This document shows positions 5,283 through 13,387 of a stretch of DNA of 64,000 nt, piece after piece. Under the pieces are notes generated by a model. It searched no databases. It was not told where the DNA came from and worked only from the letters and a program-made list of their open reading frames with translations. Every line of letters starts with the position of its first letter. Position 1 is the stretch's first letter. The position numbers and the translations under genes were made by a program. The stretch comes from a virus, in IMG/VR virus record IMGVR_UViG_3300022912_000005, positions 1 through 64,000 of that record; one strand, 5' to 3'.

Positions 5283-5858
5283 ATGAATAAATTAGCAGAA
5301 ACATTAATAACACAAATAATGGACAATCCACATGAATTGATATCTAATACTGATATTGAGAATTTTATTATGGATGAAACTGCTAATATTTGTGAAATTT
5401 TCCAATTGAAAGAATCAAATTTATCTACTGGAATTTCAACAGATGATGGTCCGAGTGTGTATTATCGAAATATGAATTCATATAAGAGTAGTTCAGCAAA
5501 TGCGGCTGAGAAATTAGGAATGACAGTTCTTGATTATTTAGTAAAAGATGATAAAATGAATAAAACATTTAGAATATATCCAACAGGTCCAGTTGATTCT
5601 GTATCGTTTGCACCAGCTGGTGTAGGAACTGGACAAACACCAAATAACCAAACTGATTTAGTTGGTAAAGAGTTATGGGATGCATATATGAAACATATCA
5701 GAACAGTGAGTCAACAAGTTGGATATAAATTAATTGATTATCTTGGAAAAGATTCAAAAAATCATATTTTAAATATGGTATATAAAACGGAACGTGAACA
5801 AAAAGAATTAGAAAATTTGTGGAGCGATTTAAACGAAAATAAAATAAAGGGTCAATAA
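5283..5858 (+). CDS. Conserved-type phage protein of unknown function (191 aa)
   Basis: ATG at 5283 is preferred over an upstream in-frame TTG at 5274 because it lies behind a TTGAGA stretch at better spacing. The protein is soluble and mostly helical, with an N-terminal segment (NKLAETLITQIMDNPHELIS) and a C-terminal charged helix (YKTEREQKELENLWSDL). The middle contains SVSFAPAGVGTGQTPNN, likely a loop. I do not recognise the family. It is the first gene of a run leading into the terminase and its stop is directly followed by the GTG of the next gene, so it is probably co-transcribed with packaging genes; a small terminase role is possible but nothing in the sequence shows it. Confidence 0.6.
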   Translation: MNKLAETLITQIMDNPHELISNTDIENFIMDETANICEIFQLKESNLSTGISTDDGPSVYYRNMNSYKSSSANAAEKLGMTVLDYLVKDDKMNKTFRIYPTGPVDSVSFAPAGVGTGQTPNNQTDLVGKELWDAYMKHIRTVSQQVGYKLIDYLGKDSKNHILNMVYKTEREQKELENLWSDLNENKIKGQ

Positions 5859-7599: not shown

Positions 7600-8436
7600 A
7601 TGGCTAAACAAAATAATTATAAACATATCATAAAACGAGAATTCATAAAATGTGGGCAGGATTGTGATTATTTTTTAAATAAATATGCAATAATTCAACA
7701 TCCATTGAAGGGTAAAATTAAATTTAGTTTATATGATTTTCAACGAACAACATTGACTGATTATATAGAGCATAGATATAATATTATTCTAAAATCACGA
7801 CAATTGGGATTATCAACATTGACAGCTGGATATTCACTATGGTTAATGTTATTTCACTCAGATAAATTGATTATGTGTGTAGCTAAAGATAAAGATGCGG
7901 CTAAGAATCTGATAACAAAAGTTGAAGTGATGTATGATAATCTTCCATCTTGGTTGAAAGTGCCAACATCTGAATATAATAAATTATCAATGGGACTTAC
8001 AAATGGATCATTGATTAAAGCAGTAGCGGCAACACCAGAAGCTGGTAGATCAGATGCATTATCATTATTAATTTTAGATGAATCAGCTTTTACTATGTAT
8101 GCAGATTCAATATGGACTGCGGCTCATCAAACATTGGCAACTGGTGGTGATTGTATTTGCTTATCAACTCCAAACGGTGTAGGTAATTGGTTTCACAAAA
8201 CATGGCAAAAAGCAAACAGTGGTGAGAGTCAATTCAACCCAATTAAACTTAAATGGACAGTACACCCAGATAGAGATCAAGCGTGGAGAGATCAACAAGA
8301 TTTAGATTTAGGACCGAAAATGGCGGCACAAGAATGTGTGTGGGGTGAGAGTGTGGTTACGGTTAAAGATAATGATACTGGTGAAATAAAAACTATTTCG
8401 TTATATGATTTATATATGGAGTTAAATGGTGGATAA
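7600..8436 (+). CDS. Terminase large subunit, N-terminal ATPase half fused to an N-intein
   Basis: Residues 1-245 are the packaging-motor ATPase: Walker A-like SRQLGLS at 66-72, Walker B LLILDE at 156-161 and the coupling motif STPNG at 189-193, as in T4 gp17. At Cys246 (base 8335) the terminase sequence stops and a 33-residue N-intein begins (CVWGESVVTV ... LYDLYMELNGG), ending at the stop codon. It resembles the very short N-pieces of atypically split TerL inteins such as AceL-TerL (CVYGDTMV...). The remaining intein and the nuclease half are encoded at 9300-10520, and trans-splicing should rebuild a ~542-residue motor. The last 11 bases overlap the endonuclease gene that occupies the gap. 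Confidence 0.92.
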   Translation: MAKQNNYKHIIKREFIKCGQDCDYFLNKYAIIQHPLKGKIKFSLYDFQRTTLTDYIEHRYNIILKSRQLGLSTLTAGYSLWLMLFHSDKLIMCVAKDKDAAKNLITKVEVMYDNLPSWLKVPTSEYNKLSMGLTNGSLIKAVAATPEAGRSDALSLLILDESAFTMYADSIWTAAHQTLATGGDCICLSTPNGVGNWFHKTWQKANSGESQFNPIKLKWTVHPDRDQAWRDQQDLDLGPKMAAQECVWGESVVTVKDNDTGEIKTISLYDLYMELNGG

Positions 8437-9313
8437 CTTGAAATGTAAATTATGTGATTATACTGCAAAACAATTATTTCAACATTTGCGTGCTGTTCAT
8501 AATATATCTACTCAAGAATATAGAGAACGATTTGGAAAAGATGAAGTGGTGCAACTTAATTTCAACCCATCTAGATCGACAGTTGATGTTGAACATGCCA
8601 ACTACGTGCGAGGTGGCTATAAAAAACAAAAGACATTATTACAAAATGTTAAACAATTATATAGTAAAGATACAGTGCGAGATATATTAATTGAAAATGA
8701 ATTATGGAAAAACTATGTAGGTAGAACAAAACAAAGAACATTATTCAAAGATGATATTGTATTATATAAATCAATATTTGAATATACTAATATATTAAAT
8801 GATTATATCAATTGTGTAAAACTACCGCAGAGATTAGTATTTATTATAGATGGTAATTATGATATTAATTTTGCTAAATGTGAATGTGGTAATACATATA
8901 CGTTTAATAAATATTGTAGATATTGTCCAGTTAATAAATCAAATCCAGCTAATAGAAAGCAATCAGCTGAAACAAAAAGAAAGCGTAGATTAAGTGCTAT
9001 AAAATATATTTCAAAAATGAAAGGGCAATGTGCACCTAGGTATAATATAGATTCAATTCCAATAATTGAACAATATGGAAAAGATCATGGATATAATTTT
9101 AAACACGCAGAAAATGGAGGAGAATATTATATTAAAGATTTAGGATATTGGGTTGATGGATATGATGAGGTGAAGAATGTGGTGATTGAGATCGATGAAC
9201 GTCATCACTTTCAATATGGTGGTGAATTAAAAGATAGAGATCAACAACGACAATCGGAAATTGAAAACAAACTCAATTGTGAGTTTATTAGGATTAAATA
9301 TGAAAGTAAATAA
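8426..9313 (+). CDS. Free-standing Vsr-like homing endonuclease lying within the fractured terminase gene
   Basis: 295 aa. The N-terminus has a C2H2-like zinc finger (C7, C10, H20, H25) followed by NISTQEYRERFG, a MucR-like pattern of DNA-binding modules. A second Cys cluster (CECGNTYTF...CRYC) lies mid-protein. The C-terminal ~90 residues (DLGYWVDGYDEVKNVVIEIDERHHF ... DRDQQRQSEI split here for length) match the very-short-patch-repair fold of the EDxHD homing endonucleases such as I-Bth0305I. This is the class found inside fractured genes with split inteins. Its product should cut intein-less terL alleles and spread the whole unit. It overlaps the N-intein gene by 11 bases and the C-intein gene by 14, so the three are translationally coupled. 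Confidence 0.85.
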   Translation: MVDNLKCKLCDYTAKQLFQHLRAVHNISTQEYRERFGKDEVVQLNFNPSRSTVDVEHANYVRGGYKKQKTLLQNVKQLYSKDTVRDILIENELWKNYVGRTKQRTLFKDDIVLYKSIFEYTNILNDYINCVKLPQRLVFIIDGNYDINFAKCECGNTYTFNKYCRYCPVNKSNPANRKQSAETKRKRRLSAIKYISKMKGQCAPRYNIDSIPIIEQYGKDHGYNFKHAENGGEYYIKDLGYWVDGYDEVKNVVIEIDERHHFQYGGELKDRDQQRQSEIENKLNCEFIRIKYESK

Positions 9314-10520
9314 TAAATATAAAATATTAACACCAGATGGATTTGAACAATTCAGCGGCATCACTAAATTACAGAAAGAATCACATTTTGTTATATCATT
9401 ATCAAATGATAAAATTATTAAGTGTTCATTAAATCATAGATTTATTAAAAATGGTGAGGCTATATATGCATATGAATTAGTGGTTGGTGATAACATTGAT
9501 TCTGTTAATAATGCTGAGGTATTTGTGACTGATATTACGTTTAGTGATAGTTATATTGATTTATATGATATTAATGATGTTGGTGATAAAAGCATTTTTA
9601 ATGTAGATGGTATTGTTAGCCATAATTGTGATACTGATTTTTTATCATCTGGTAATTCAGTAGTCGATTTGACAATTTTAGAACAATATAGAAAAGAAAC
9701 GATAATCGATCCGATAGCAAAAGAATTTGTTGATAAAAACTTATGGATATGGAAATATAGTGAAGCTGGTAAGAATTATGTAGTAAGTGCTGATGTTGCT
9801 AGAGGTGATGGTGCTGATTATTCTACACTTCAAGTATTTGATGTAGATAACGTAGAACAGGTTGCTGAATATAAAGGACAATTAGATACTACAGTGTTTG
9901 GTAATTTTGCGATTGAGATAGCAACAAAATATAATGATGCATTATTAATTGTTGAAAATAATAATGTAGGTTGGGCTGTGATTCAAACAATTATCGATAG
10001 AGGATATAAGAATCTATTCTACCAAACAAAAGATTTAAAATATGTAGAATCTATAAACCGAAAAACAAACAATAAATACTACAAACTCGAAGATCAAAAA
10101 GTACCAGGATTTACTACATCAATGAAAACACGACCATTGATTGTAGCTAAAATGGAAGAATACACAAGAACAAAACAAGCAATATTAAGATCATCAAGAT
10201 TGATAGATGAGTTAGAAGTATTCATATATCGAAATGGTAAACCAGAAGCGCAGACTGGATATAACGATGATCTAACAATGGCATACGCAATAAACTTATG
10301 GATCAGAGATACCGCACTAAGATTAAAGAAAAAAAATACTGAAGTTCAAGAATCAATGCTTAGTGCAATTGTTGATTTTAATGGTAATGATGTATCTACC
10401 GAAGAAGAACTTATGCAAAATAGAGAACAGTCTAAAGAATATCAAGATTATTTGAAAAGGATGTCCGTGACAACAGATAACTCATCAGATGACGAAGACT
10501 TTTCTTGGTTAATTAATTAA
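9300..10520 (+). CDS. C-intein fused to the terminase large subunit nuclease half
   Basis: The ATG at 9300 is chosen, after TAGGA at correct distance, over an in-frame upstream ATG lying inside the endonuclease gene. Residues 1-109 are the C-intein: block B is CSLNHRF (~42-48) and the terminal blocks end VDGIVSHN with catalytic Asn109; Cys+1 is at base 9627. Residues 110-406 are the terminase C-terminal half with RNase H-like nuclease acids: VVSADVARGDG (Asp), LLIVENNNVGW (Glu) and YNDDLTMAYAINLWI (Asp). Joining point is ...MAAQE/CDTDF, a conserved TerL position also used by AceL-TerL. The protein acts at the portal to translocate and cut concatemeric DNA. Confidence 0.92.
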   Translation: MKVNNKYKILTPDGFEQFSGITKLQKESHFVISLSNDKIIKCSLNHRFIKNGEAIYAYELVVGDNIDSVNNAEVFVTDITFSDSYIDLYDINDVGDKSIFNVDGIVSHNCDTDFLSSGNSVVDLTILEQYRKETIIDPIAKEFVDKNLWIWKYSEAGKNYVVSADVARGDGADYSTLQVFDVDNVEQVAEYKGQLDTTVFGNFAIEIATKYNDALLIVENNNVGWAVIQTIIDRGYKNLFYQTKDLKYVESINRKTNNKYYKLEDQKVPGFTTSMKTRPLIVAKMEEYTRTKQAILRSSRLIDELEVFIYRNGKPEAQTGYNDDLTMAYAINLWIRDTALRLKKKNTEVQESMLSAIVDFNGNDVSTEEELMQNREQSKEYQDYLKRMSVTTDNSSDDEDFSWLIN

Positions 10521-10540: not shown

Positions 10541-13387
10541 ATGGCAGAAAAAAATAACATATTTAGTAGATTACGAAATTTATTTACAAATGATACAATT
10601 ATCAGACGTAATAAGCGTGGAAAATTAATTGTAAAAGATATTGATTATTCACAACGAGCGTTGACTACCAATTTCATGGATAAATATAATCGAATTTATT
10701 CTAATTCACGAGTGTATGGTGGTAATAAACGTAATAAGATGGGTTCAGCATCTATTAGATCATCAATTAGACCGATGATTTATAGGGAATATGAATGTAT
10801 ATCAGGTGATACTATAATACCATTACCAGATGGTAAAAAGATGACTATGAAGGAATTGGCTGAAACATATCCAGACAAAAGTACTACATTTTATGTGTAT
10901 TCGTATGATCATAAAACTGATACAATAAAGTTAGGAAAAGCACATTCAGTTAGAAAAACTAAAACTGAATTGACATATAAAGTGACATTCGATAATGGTG
11001 AATTTATATTAGCTACAGAAAATCATCCATTTTTGATGAGAGATGGTGAGTATAAACAAGTACATGAATTGACAGAAAATGATTCAGTAATGCCACTATA
11101 TCAAAAAAGATTTTATGGTCATAAATCTTATAGATTTTTATATAATTTTTCAAAAGGATGGCAAGCTGAACATAAAATTGTAGCTGAACAATTTCACGGT
11201 GATGTGAATGAAGGTCACATTGTACATCACGTTGATTTTCAGAAGGAGAATAATTTACCAGATAATTTGAAAATAATGACGGAACATGACCATAAACATT
11301 ATCATTGTGTATTAATAAATAAAAATATAAAATGGGCTCCAGAAAATAGAGATAAGCAAATAGCGGCGATTAAACTTGCTAAATCTAAACTACCAACATA
11401 TTCTTGGGATGGTAAACGAAGTGGTGAAAATAATCCATTCTATGGAAAATCACATACTACAGAAAGTAAGTTGATGCGAAGTGAGAAGCACAAAGAGTGG
11501 CATAGATTGAATCCTGACGCTCAACAAGGTGTCAAAAACGCACGATATAGACATGATGTAACTATTGACTCAATATTAGAAAAAAGTTACGAATTGCTAA
11601 AGAATGATAATTTTAAAAAATATGAATTATTATCAGAATTGAATTGTGATAACGGTGTATTGTATGATCGATTAGAATCTATCGACATATCCAATTGGTA
11701 TGAGTTTAGAAATTATATACAAGCAACATTAAATCATAAAATAGTATCAATCGAACCATATGAAGTTGAAGATGTATATGATATGACAGTAGATACGTAT
11801 CATAATTTCGCAACAACAATGTGTTTTGTTCATAATTCTATGGACACTGATCCGATCATAGCATCAGCATTGGATGTTTATAGTGATGAGAGTACTGTTG
11901 GTGATGTGAATGGTGAAATGTTGACAATCAAAACTGATGATACAAAAATGAAAAAGATTCTTACTAATTTATTTTATGATAGATTAAATATCACTTTTAA
12001 TCTATGGTCTTGGATTAGAAATTTAACAAAATATGGTGATTTCTTTTTGAGATTAAATATTGTTGATAAAAATGGAGTTGTTGGAGTTGAGCCAATGTCA
12101 CCATATGAAATTGAACGAGTAGAAGATAGTGATCCTGAAAATCCAAATTTAGTTATTTTTACATACATGGATGATACGACAAGTGTATTAACTAAAAAGT
12201 CTGCTGAAGAACTACAAAATTATGAAGTAGCTCATTTTAGATTGATGTCAGATTCTAATTATTTACCATATGGAAAAAGCATGATTGAAGGTGGTAGAAA
12301 AATATGGAAACAATTGACATTGATGGAAGATGCTATGTTAATTCAACGAATAATGAGAGCACCAGAACGAAGAATATTTAAAGTGGATGTTGGTAATTTA
12401 GAACCAAATAAAATTGATGCATTCATGAAGAAATTTATTGCAAAGACAAAGAAAATTCCAGTAATTGATCAAGCTACTGGTGATTATAATTTAAAGTTTA
12501 ATGTTGACTCTGTAATGGATGATTATTATCTACCAGTACGTGGTTCAGATAGTGGAACTGATGTTGATACATTAGCTGGATTATCAAATGATGGTGCGAT
12601 TGATGATATTGAATATTTAAGAAATAAAATGATGGCATCATTAAAAATACCAAAAGCATTCTTAGGATATGAAGAATCATTATCATCAAAAAGCACATTA
12701 GCCGCTGAAGATGTTCGATTCAGTAGAACGATTGAAAGAATTCAAAAGATCGTAACAGCTGAATTGACAAAAGTTGCAATCATTCATCTATACACACAAG
12801 GATATGACGATGGTGATTTATTGAATTTTGAATTATTATTAACAAATCCATCAACAATCCATGAACAAGAAAAATTAGAAATATTGGAGAGAAAGTTGGA
12901 CATTGCAACATCAGCTCTTGAAAGTAATTTATTATCTAAGGATTGGGTGTATGATAAGATATTTGGATTCAGTGATGATGAACGAACAAATTTAACTGAT
13001 CAAATAATCGATGATTTGAAAGAGAAGTTTAGACAGGAACAAATTGAACAAGGTGGAAATGATCCTGCATATAGTGGTGAAAAAGTTGACACGAAAGAAG
13101 AAGAAGAGGAATGGGGTGGTAGTGAAAAAGGACCAGAATATGACAATACAGATACTGGGGAAGAACTTGGTAGCAATGACAATAAAAATGCTATGAAAAA
13201 TAGCGATAAGTTTGGATCGAGAGAATTCAAAAAGGGTAGTCCACTAGGATTATCAGCTGGATATAAAAAATCAAGAAATAAATCATTATTATCTATGTTG
13301 GAGAAGGAATTCACTACAAAAGATAAAGATACGTCAATATTAAGTGAAGATGCACTATTGAACGAAAAAAATGAAAAAAATAAATAA
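10541..13387 (+). CDS. Portal protein (T4 gp20-like) interrupted in frame by an HNH intein
   Basis: 948 residues as encoded; removal of the intein (residues 86-432) leaves a 601-residue portal, near gp20 size (524). The extein runs IRSSIRPMIYREYE/SMDTDPIIASALDVYSDEST, the conserved start of the T4-type portal body, and later contains YLPYGKSMIEGGRKIWKQL, ERRIFKVDVGN and DVDTLAGLSNDGAIDDIEYLRNKM, all typical of gp20. The C-terminal ~110 residues are charged and low in complexity. The portal forms the dodecameric vertex that docks the terminase and nucleates prohead assembly. The gene follows terL by 20 bases with an AGAGGA ribosome binding site. Both partner proteins of the packaging motor therefore depend on protein splicing. 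Confidence 0.93.
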   Translation: MAEKNNIFSRLRNLFTNDTIIRRNKRGKLIVKDIDYSQRALTTNFMDKYNRIYSNSRVYGGNKRNKMGSASIRSSIRPMIYREYECISGDTIIPLPDGKKMTMKELAETYPDKSTTFYVYSYDHKTDTIKLGKAHSVRKTKTELTYKVTFDNGEFILATENHPFLMRDGEYKQVHELTENDSVMPLYQKRFYGHKSYRFLYNFSKGWQAEHKIVAEQFHGDVNEGHIVHHVDFQKENNLPDNLKIMTEHDHKHYHCVLINKNIKWAPENRDKQIAAIKLAKSKLPTYSWDGKRSGENNPFYGKSHTTESKLMRSEKHKEWHRLNPDAQQGVKNARYRHDVTIDSILEKSYELLKNDNFKKYELLSELNCDNGVLYDRLESIDISNWYEFRNYIQATLNHKIVSIEPYEVEDVYDMTVDTYHNFATTMCFVHNSMDTDPIIASALDVYSDESTVGDVNGEMLTIKTDDTKMKKILTNLFYDRLNITFNLWSWIRNLTKYGDFFLRLNIVDKNGVVGVEPMSPYEIERVEDSDPENPNLVIFTYMDDTTSVLTKKSAEELQNYEVAHFRLMSDSNYLPYGKSMIEGGRKIWKQLTLMEDAMLIQRIMRAPERRIFKVDVGNLEPNKIDAFMKKFIAKTKKIPVIDQATGDYNLKFNVDSVMDDYYLPVRGSDSGTDVDTLAGLSNDGAIDDIEYLRNKMMASLKIPKAFLGYEESLSSKSTLAAEDVRFSRTIERIQKIVTAELTKVAIIHLYTQGYDDGDLLNFELLLTNPSTIHEQEKLEILERKLDIATSALESNLLSKDWVYDKIFGFSDDERTNLTDQIIDDLKEKFRQEQIEQGGNDPAYSGEKVDTKEEEEEWGGSEKGPEYDNTDTGEELGSNDNKNAMKNSDKFGSREFKKGSPLGLSAGYKKSRNKSLLSMLEKEFTTKDKDTSILSEDALLNEKNEKNK
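10796..11836 (+). mobile_element. Full-length intein with HNH endonuclease domain inside the portal gene
   Basis: Begins with Cys (CISGDTIIPLPDGK, block A), block B is ATENHPFL, and it ends YHNFATTMCFVHN with Ser as +1 residue (base 11837), giving 347 intein residues. Between the splicing blocks sits an HNH-type nuclease: HIVHHVDFQKENNLPDNL followed by HDHKHYH, then ENNPFYGKSHTTESK, a NUMOD3-like DNA-binding module. All splicing residues (Cys1, TxxH-like block B His, terminal His-Asn, Ser+1) are visible, so it should be active in splicing and perhaps in homing. Confidence 0.9.

What the first reader, a model, noticed from the sequence alone, without database searches (positions are those of the whole stretch)
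7600..10520. Fractured terminase gene: split intein plus free-standing Vsr-like endonuclease
Seen: the TerL N-half ends in a 33-residue N-intein (Cys246), an endonuclease gene fills the gap with overlaps of 11 and 14 bases, and a 109-residue C-intein (ending HN/C) starts the nuclease half. This matches the 'fractured gene' arrangement known from metagenomic phages, with the atypical S1-type split of AceL-TerL inteins (very short N-piece, long C-piece). The case is of interest because it appears in a full genomic context, with an endonuclease of the zinc-finger plus EDxHD type.
Basis: partly seen in the sequence, partly recalled or inferred. Interest (0 to 1): 0.85.

Follow-up and report, generated by a model that had tools for sequence, protein, structure and literature searches.

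The report
Phage packaging-motor gene split by intein
A virus of bacteria carries its DNA-packaging motor gene broken in two, with self-joining protein tags on the halves and a gene for a DNA-cutting enzyme in the gap; this is a real and clear new example of an already described kind of mobile genetic parasite, and the many relatives found here show how it spreads, decays and even breaks the gene twice.

Summary
TerL N-half 7600-8436 ends in a 33-residue N-intein from Cys246. A 295-aa endonuclease ORF (8426-9313) overlaps it by 11 nt and the C-half by 14 nt. The C-half (ATG 9300-10520) opens with a 109-residue C-intein ending HN/C. The insert is 8335-9626. Fifty-three distinct intein-free TerLs join exactly there (QE|CD; E, C and D invariant), and the 113.6-kb record has no second terL. 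The C-intein is homologous to CatC, the solved consensus of the atypically split AceL/GOS-TerL inteins. So this is a new member of a known kind: a fractured gene with an atypical split TerL intein.

The relatives add more. About 47 distinct TerLs carry the cassette, at two sites two codons apart. Endonucleases are under purifying selection (dN/dS 0.07-0.27), and cassette DNA can be more alike than its flanks, which supports homing. Other states occur: endonuclease fused to the N-half, endonuclease decayed, swapped nuclease domain, and terL fractured twice into three ORFs (two diverged phages). 'Vsr-like' is plausible but only weakly supported; 'EDxHD' was not demonstrated. Splicing and cleavage are inferred, not shown.

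The parts
7600..8334 (+). TerL N-extein (245 aa, ATPase domain)
   Evidence: Pfam Terminase_6N 7e-7; PHROG terminase large subunit 4e-42; about 50-67% identical to relatives up to residue 245
8335..8433 (+). N-intein, 33 aa from Cys246 (stop 8434-8436)
   Evidence: begins exactly at the junction of intein-free relatives; CxWGxSxVxV...LY-type motif shared by the fractured relatives
8426..9313 (+). free-standing putative homing endonuclease, 295 aa, overlapping both TerL halves (11 and 14 nt)
   Evidence: same gene in the same place in fractured terL loci of diverged phages; dN/dS 0.07-0.27 in the family
8444..8500 (+). C2H2-type zinc finger (C7, C10, H20, H25), ROS/MucR-like DNA-binding module of the endonuclease
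   Evidence: Pfam ROS_MUCR 8e-4 here, best 3.6e-5 in relatives; all four ligands invariant
8879..8926 (+). second Cys cluster (CxC...CxxC, C152-C167) of the endonuclease
   Evidence: all four Cys invariant in 28 aligned family members
9041..9298 (+). predicted nuclease domain (about residues 206-291; D244, E255xD257E258xHH261, D272, R275)
   Evidence: conserved residues; Pfam MTES_1575/DUF559 about 2e-6 in members; weak Foldseek match to Vsr 1vsr
9300..9626 (+). C-intein, 109 aa (block B SLNH, block F LYDINDV, block G GIVSHN)
   Evidence: phmmer 6dsl_B CatC E=5e-12; profile E=3.7e-25, also gp41-1 and VidaL; Foldseek 6dsl_B E=6e-9, TM 0.77, 37% identity
9627..10517 (+). TerL C-extein, 297 aa, starting with Cys+1 (nuclease domain; stop 10518-10520)
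   Evidence: PHROG terminase; profile match to gp17 1.6e-15; Foldseek T4 gp17 E=2e-13, RB49 and G20c TerL nuclease domains
8335..9626 (+). whole inserted cassette, 1292 bp (N-intein, endonuclease gene, C-intein), absent from intein-free relatives

Best explanation
This is a mobile intein cassette in the large terminase gene (terL) of a T4-like myovirus. Three overlapping ORFs are made: TerL ATPase half plus N-intein, a site-specific endonuclease, and C-intein plus TerL nuclease half. The two intein pieces associate (33-residue N-piece docking into the 109-residue C-piece, as in the AceL/GOS/Cat-TerL inteins) and splice in trans. That ligates QE-245 to CD-246 and restores a normal, scarless TerL, so the fracture costs the phage little. 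The separately translated endonuclease recognises uninterrupted terL around the QE|CD codons with its zinc finger and helical/Cys-rich DNA-binding region. It cuts empty alleles in co-infecting phages, and repair copies the whole 1.3-kb cassette across (homing). Shown here: the anatomy, the homology of every part, empty alleles joined exactly at the site, no second terL in the record, purifying selection on the endonuclease family, and sporadic distribution with cassette-biased similarity in some pairs. Inferred: trans-splicing, DNA cleavage, homing.
For: Anatomy. C-intein homology to CatC, gp41-1 and VidaL and structure. Catalytic residues conserved: H46, D90, N109 and C+1 invariant in 33 C-halves, S43 and H108 nearly so. 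Fifty-three distinct intein-free TerLs with N- and C-extein contiguous at residues 245/246; E245, C246 and D247 are 53/53. Close empty/occupied pairs: L081/L084 versus L121/L125, flank DNA 71-77% on both sides with an exact break. Same order of parts, mostly as three ORFs with short overlaps, in over 40 distinct relatives. Endonuclease dN/dS 0.07-0.27. Endonuclease dS far below TerL dS in some pairs (L123/L124 0.06 vs 0.31; L146/L152 0.11 vs 0.73/1.54), and cassette DNA 95-99% identical against mostly 75-92% in the first ~0.9 kb on either side for L149/L152. Presence label needs 8 changes on the TerL tree. Endonuclease/TerL trees disagree more (deltaL 509-615, RF 48-50) than the two TerL halves do with each other (deltaL 96-168, RF 36). 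No second terL half. No Rfam intron or other RNA.
Against: No splicing or cleavage assay exists for this locus. In some pairs (L137/L154, L141/L143) the cassette is not more similar than its flanks, and TerL halves also conflict with each other, so phage recombination in general explains part of the incongruence. The endonuclease model is low quality (mean pLDDT 71, pTM 0.41), with no Foldseek match below 1e-3. The record is a 113.6-kb virus record that may be incomplete, so a second terL elsewhere is not strictly excluded.
Confidence: 0.9

Rival explanations
1. The split intein is real and splices, but the endonuclease is no longer a homing enzyme; it is a decaying or domesticated passenger kept because its ORF couples translation of the two halves.
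For: Decay happens in the family: L094 keeps only a 45-aa zinc-finger ORF between the halves, L092 has a broken and L161 a truncated endonuclease frame, L087 lacks the last residues, L176 has no endonuclease at the QE|C site. Short overlaps are conserved.
Against: In the window the ORF is full length with all conserved residues, and the family shows dN/dS 0.07-0.27. Cassette-biased similarity points to recent spread in relatives.
Confidence: 0.12
2. Splicing of TerL is conditional and serves the phage as a timing switch: the packaging motor becomes active only when both halves have accumulated and spliced.
For: The ATPase and nuclease domains are kept apart until splicing; splicing of the AceL-TerL intein depends on temperature (PMC11766414).
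Against: Close relatives have intact terL with no cassette, and presence is patchy, as expected of a parasite rather than a needed control. No evidence on timing.
Confidence: 0.05
3. The two halves work as separate subunits without splicing, or terL is a pseudogene.
For: Only that splicing has not been shown here.
Against: All residues needed for splicing are conserved, including Cys1, His and Asn of block G and Cys+1. Low dN/dS of both halves in relatives. terL is essential in this phage type (established knowledge of T4-like phages) and no other copy is seen.
Confidence: 0.02
4. Assembly artefact, or an RNA intron with an intron-borne endonuclease.
For: None found.
Against: Independent assemblies with identical sequence (L001, L002) and the same order in diverged phages; no Rfam match; the intein pieces are translated in frame with the exteins up to the junction.
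Confidence: 0.01

Closest known systems
AceL-TerL / GOS-TerL / Cat-TerL atypical naturally split inteins (Thiel 2014, Bachmann 2015, Stevens 2018, as reviewed in PMC11766414; PDB 6dsl)
   Same: Same host gene, same short-N/long-C split (25-37 / about 104 aa; here 33 / 109), Cys1 and Cys+1, and clear sequence and predicted-structure homology of the C-intein to CatC.
   Different: About one third identical to the CatC consensus; here with its endonuclease gene and neighbouring genes on a long contig. The exact insertion site of AceL/GOS-TerL could not be compared because the papers are not held.
'Fractured genes' (Dassa et al. 2009, NAR 37:2560; paper not held, known through citing papers)
   Same: Essential phage gene broken in two, each half carrying part of a split intein, with a free-standing endonuclease gene in the gap and intein-free homologues elsewhere.
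   Different: From my own knowledge, those intein splits are mostly at the canonical site; here the split is atypical (short N-piece).
Split PolB intein with HNH ORF of Pseudomonas phage MIJ3 (PMC6892783)
   Same: Gene half, free-standing endonuclease, gene half, in a complete phage genome.
   Different: Other gene, HNH endonuclease, serine-type intein with a long N-piece.
gp41-1 and VidaL split inteins (PDB 6qaz, 6vgv)
   Same: Related intein domain (profile E 1e-10 and 7e-5; Foldseek E 2e-6 and 1e-5).
   Different: Other host genes and other split positions (own knowledge).
EDxHD / Vsr-type phage homing endonucleases (I-Bth0305I; large outgroup noted in PMC12350094)
   Same: C-terminal nuclease domain of Vsr/DUF559 character behind a modular DNA-binding region, in a mobile element.
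   Different: No significant match to a solved member; N-terminal ROS/MucR-like zinc finger; conserved motif is E-x-D-E-x-H-H.

Membership tests
Atypical naturally split TerL inteins (AceL/GOS/Cat type) | short N-piece (25-37 aa), long C-piece (about 104 aa) | tested here: met
   33 and 109 aa
Atypical naturally split TerL inteins (AceL/GOS/Cat type) | sequence/fold homology to the family | tested here: met
   CatC E=5e-12, 3.7e-25 profile, Foldseek TM 0.77 and 37% identity
Atypical naturally split TerL inteins (AceL/GOS/Cat type) | class 1 splice residues: Cys1, block B H, block F D, HN, nucleophilic +1 | tested here: met
   Cys246, H46, D90, H108-N109, Cys+1
Atypical naturally split TerL inteins (AceL/GOS/Cat type) | host protein is TerL | tested here: met
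Atypical naturally split TerL inteins (AceL/GOS/Cat type) | protein trans-splicing | not testable with these tools
   needs co-expression assay
Fractured genes (Dassa et al. 2009) | gene halves in separate ORFs, each with one intein piece, adjacent in order | tested here: met
Fractured genes (Dassa et al. 2009) | free-standing endonuclease gene in the gap | tested here: met
   ORF 8426-9313, same place in relatives; that it is a nuclease rests on weak homology
Fractured genes (Dassa et al. 2009) | intein-free homologues at the same site, no intact copy in the same genome | tested here: met
   53 distinct intein-free TerLs; single terL in the 113.6-kb record
EDxHD/Vsr homing endonucleases | Vsr-like PD-(D/E)xK nuclease domain | tested here: inconclusive
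   MTES_1575 2.6e-6 and DUF559 2.4e-6 in some members, none for the window protein itself; 1vsr prob 0.51, E 0.64
EDxHD/Vsr homing endonucleases | EDxHD signature residues / profile match to I-Bth0305I | tested here: inconclusive
   no PDB profile match, phage 0305phi8-36 record not held; conserved motif is ExDExHH
EDxHD/Vsr homing endonucleases | site-specific cleavage of the empty host gene | not testable with these tools
   needs cleavage assay
T4-like large terminase | ATPase plus gp17-type nuclease domain | tested here: met
   Terminase_6N; gp17 nuclease domain E=2e-13

The most novel reading that the evidence does not exclude
The window is one state of a widespread mobile element that repeatedly re-shapes the packaging-motor gene of T4-like phages. 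It uses two insertion sites two codons apart, set by which codon offers a native Cys+1. Its endonucleases exchange zinc-finger and nuclease modules, fuse to the N-half, or decay. In two diverged relatives (L088-L091 group, L176) terL is fractured twice, so that an active motor would need three polypeptides and two orthogonal natural trans-splicing reactions, one of them right behind the Walker B DE motif.
Probability: 0.7. Interest if true: 0.68.

Novelty: new member of a known kind. Interest (0 to 1): 0.48.

Why it matters
The window locus itself is a well-formed natural example for split-intein engineering (a 33-residue N-piece) and for homing in an essential motor gene. The comparative set is the larger gain. 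It offers closely related empty and occupied terL alleles, two adjacent insertion sites, several stages of endonuclease fusion, swap and decay, and doubly fractured terL. The homing cycle of split inteins, and whether two natural split inteins in one gene must be orthogonal, become directly testable.

Tried and rejected
A separate intact terL: searched with both exteins in the own record, none found. RNA intron: Rfam at E<=1, none. PF03354 TerL_ATPase was the wrong family for this T4-type terminase and gave nothing. An endonuclease structure model from six sequences was too poor to fix the nuclease family. A PDB profile search with 28 endonucleases gave only a chance zinc-cluster match. An attempt to fetch I-Bth0305I from phage 0305phi8-36 for a direct comparison failed: record not held. 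The genome-contig scan gave only two nuclease-domain-only matches. AU tests alone were rejected as proof of horizontal transfer, because the two TerL halves also reject each other's tree; only the difference in size and the dS contrast are used. Key papers (Dassa 2009, Bachmann 2015, Stevens 2018) are not held in the library; one further look-up, meant for Taylor 2011, used a wrong DOI, so that paper was not checked.

Full report
OBSERVATION. The claim was checked base by base. The TerL N-half ORF is 7600-8436 (278 aa). Residue 246 is the Cys that opens a 33-residue tail, CVWGESVVTVKDNDTGEIKTISLYDLYMELNGG. The next ORF, 8426-9313 (295 aa), overlaps it by 11 nt. The C-half, from ATG 9300 to 10520, overlaps that ORF by 14 nt and begins with 109 residues ending GIVSHN, followed by Cys. 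Both internal starts have a Shine-Dalgarno-like GGAG or AGGA in the right place (own reading). The inserted DNA is 8335-9626, 1292 bp. Two other assemblies carry it unchanged (L001, L002).

THE HOST GENE. The N-extein matches Terminase_6N (7e-7) and PHROG terminase large subunit (4e-42). The C-extein matches PHROG terminase families, and, as a profile, solved gp17 of T4 (1.6e-15). An AlphaFold2 model of the C-half (33-row alignment, mean pLDDT 78) gives Foldseek matches to T4 gp17 (2e-13), the RB49 gp17 nuclease domain and phage G20c TerL nuclease. The fracture therefore separates the ATPase from the nuclease. Neighbouring genes include a T4-type portal (1.6e-71), major head protein, tail sheath, DNA polymerase and ribonucleotide reductase: a T4-like contractile-tailed phage. 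The nearest annotated TerLs are from Microcystis phage Mel-JY01 and Flavobacterium immuto phages (45-48%). Both are annotated as one continuous terL gene.

EMPTY SITE. In 53 distinct intein-free TerLs the N-extein match ends at residue 245 and the C-extein match starts at residue 1 (window C246) with nothing between. E245, C246 and D247 are invariant in all 53; residue 248 is C in 31, A in 13 and T in 9. Neither TerL half has a second copy in the 113,597-bp record. A closely related empty/occupied pair exists: L081/L084 (QECDCDF, intact) against L121/L125 (fractured), with 71-77% DNA identity on both sides and an exact break.

THE INTEIN. The C-intein alone finds one significant solved relative, 6dsl chain B, 'Consensus engineered intein CatC' (E=5e-12). 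A 33-row C-half profile finds it at 3.7e-25, plus gp41-1 (1e-10) and VidaL (7e-5). Foldseek agrees (6dsl E=6e-9, TM 0.77, 37% identity). Cat is the consensus of GOS-TerL and AceL-TerL, the natural atypical split inteins with a 25-37-residue N-piece (PMC11766414). In the aligned C-halves H46, D90, N109 and C+1 are invariant and S43 and H108 nearly so. This is an atypical split TerL intein.

THE ENDONUCLEASE. It has an N-terminal C2H2 finger (C7, C10, H20, H25; ROS/MucR-like, 8e-4 here and 3.6e-5 in a relative), a helical middle, a CxC...CxxC cluster and a C-terminal domain with D244, E255-x-D257-E258-x-H260-H261, D272 and R275. Relatives match MTES_1575 (2.6e-6) and DUF559 (2.4e-6), which by my own knowledge belong to the Vsr/PD-(D/E)xK group. 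Ten of 28 show a weak NUMOD3 signal. The AlphaFold2 model is poor (pLDDT 71, pTM 0.41); its nuclease matches include 1vsr at probability 0.51. 'Vsr-like' is plausible; 'EDxHD' is unproven.

DISTRIBUTION. Scanning viral contigs with the endonuclease alignment gave 286 relatives, of which 80 were kept. Nearly all of these lie between the halves of a fractured terL. Among 100 distinct TerLs examined, 38 carry the cassette at site B, 9 at site A and 53 have none; this is not a frequency estimate, since the queries chose the sample. Site A is QE|C (window). Site B is two codons on, QECD|CDF. Both use a native extein Cys as +1. Site B needs Cys248; most site-A loci lack it (T, A or G at that position; C in L005 and L093). 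Site-A endonucleases carry the zinc finger and site-B ones start after it; exceptions are L087 (B with finger) and L157 (A without).

STATES. (1) Three ORFs, as here. (2) Two ORFs with N-half, N-intein and endonuclease in one frame: L127, L157. (3) Endonuclease reduced to a 45-aa finger ORF with overlaps kept: L094. (4) Same finger and middle region but another nuclease domain: L164. (5) terL fractured twice: L088-L091 and, diverged (61% in the site-1 endonuclease), L176. Here the first intein sits right behind Walker B DE and the second at QE|C. L176 has no endonuclease at the second site, and the middle TerL ORF bears a C-intein in front and an N-intein behind.

MOBILITY. Endonuclease dN/dS is 0.07-0.27 in pairs where it could be computed. 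In some pairs the cassette is younger than the gene: L123/L124 dS 0.06 (endonuclease) against 0.31 (both exteins), and L146/L152 0.11 against 0.73 and 1.54. For L149/L152 the cassette is 95-99% identical while most flanking windows within about 0.9 kb are 75-92%, with individual windows up to 99%. In others (L137/L154, L141/L143) there is no such excess. On the TerL tree cassette presence needs 8 changes and the three-way site label 13. Endonuclease and TerL trees conflict (deltaL 509-615; RF 48-50) more than the TerL halves conflict with each other (deltaL 96-168; RF 36), though those also reject each other. Homing is thus supported, not proven.

KNOWN OR NEW. Fractured genes with free-standing endonucleases were described in 2009 (Dassa et al., cited in PMC12350094 and PMC6892783) and atypical split TerL inteins in 2014-2018 (PMC11766414). 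The window is a new member of that kind. I found no report of a natural gene fractured twice by split inteins in the held open-access library, but my search was narrow and the key papers are not held, so I claim no priority.

Noticed in passing
L088, L089, L090, L091, L173 (same phage kind) and L176 3358-6898: terL fractured twice: a split intein with its own 342-aa endonuclease right behind the Walker B DE motif, and a second split intein at QE|C. The 84-residue middle TerL piece has a C-intein in front and an N-intein behind. L176 is a diverged second case without an endonuclease at the second site.
   Followed up: partly
L127 3140-4768 and L157 3068-4648: TerL N-half, N-intein and endonuclease form one continuous ORF, with only the C-half separate: a two-ORF state that may be an intermediate between intein-borne and free-standing endonuclease.
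   Followed up: partly
L094 4989-5126: Endonuclease reduced to a 45-aa zinc-finger ORF between the two TerL halves, overlaps kept. The C-half also has a TGA where relatives have Trp (5563-5565).
   Followed up: partly
L164 3734-4789: Same zinc finger and middle region as the window endonuclease but a different nuclease domain (EFDGxYWH type): a module swap.
   Followed up: partly
window 10796-11842, in portal gene 10541-13387: The next gene (portal, gp20-like) carries a contiguous intein with an HNH_3 endonuclease and NUMOD3. Only contigs of the window's own phage (L179, L180) were found to carry a close relative.
   Followed up: partly
L095 4137-7011: A DnaB-like helicase gene fractured in or near its P-loop, with an ORF between the halves that shares the zinc finger but has another Vsr-like nuclease domain.
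   Followed up: no
L087 3293-4162, L100 1188-1619, L161 1332-1601, L162 1062-1400, L164 1471-2256, L096 4380-5399: Free-standing relatives of the nuclease domain (some with NUMOD3-like repeats), mostly a few kb upstream of terL; in L162 the terL itself is intein-free.
   Followed up: no
intein-bearing loci, TerL residues 246-248: Two insertion sites two codons apart, seemingly set by whether residue 248 is Cys; zinc-finger endonucleases go mostly with the first site.
   Followed up: partly
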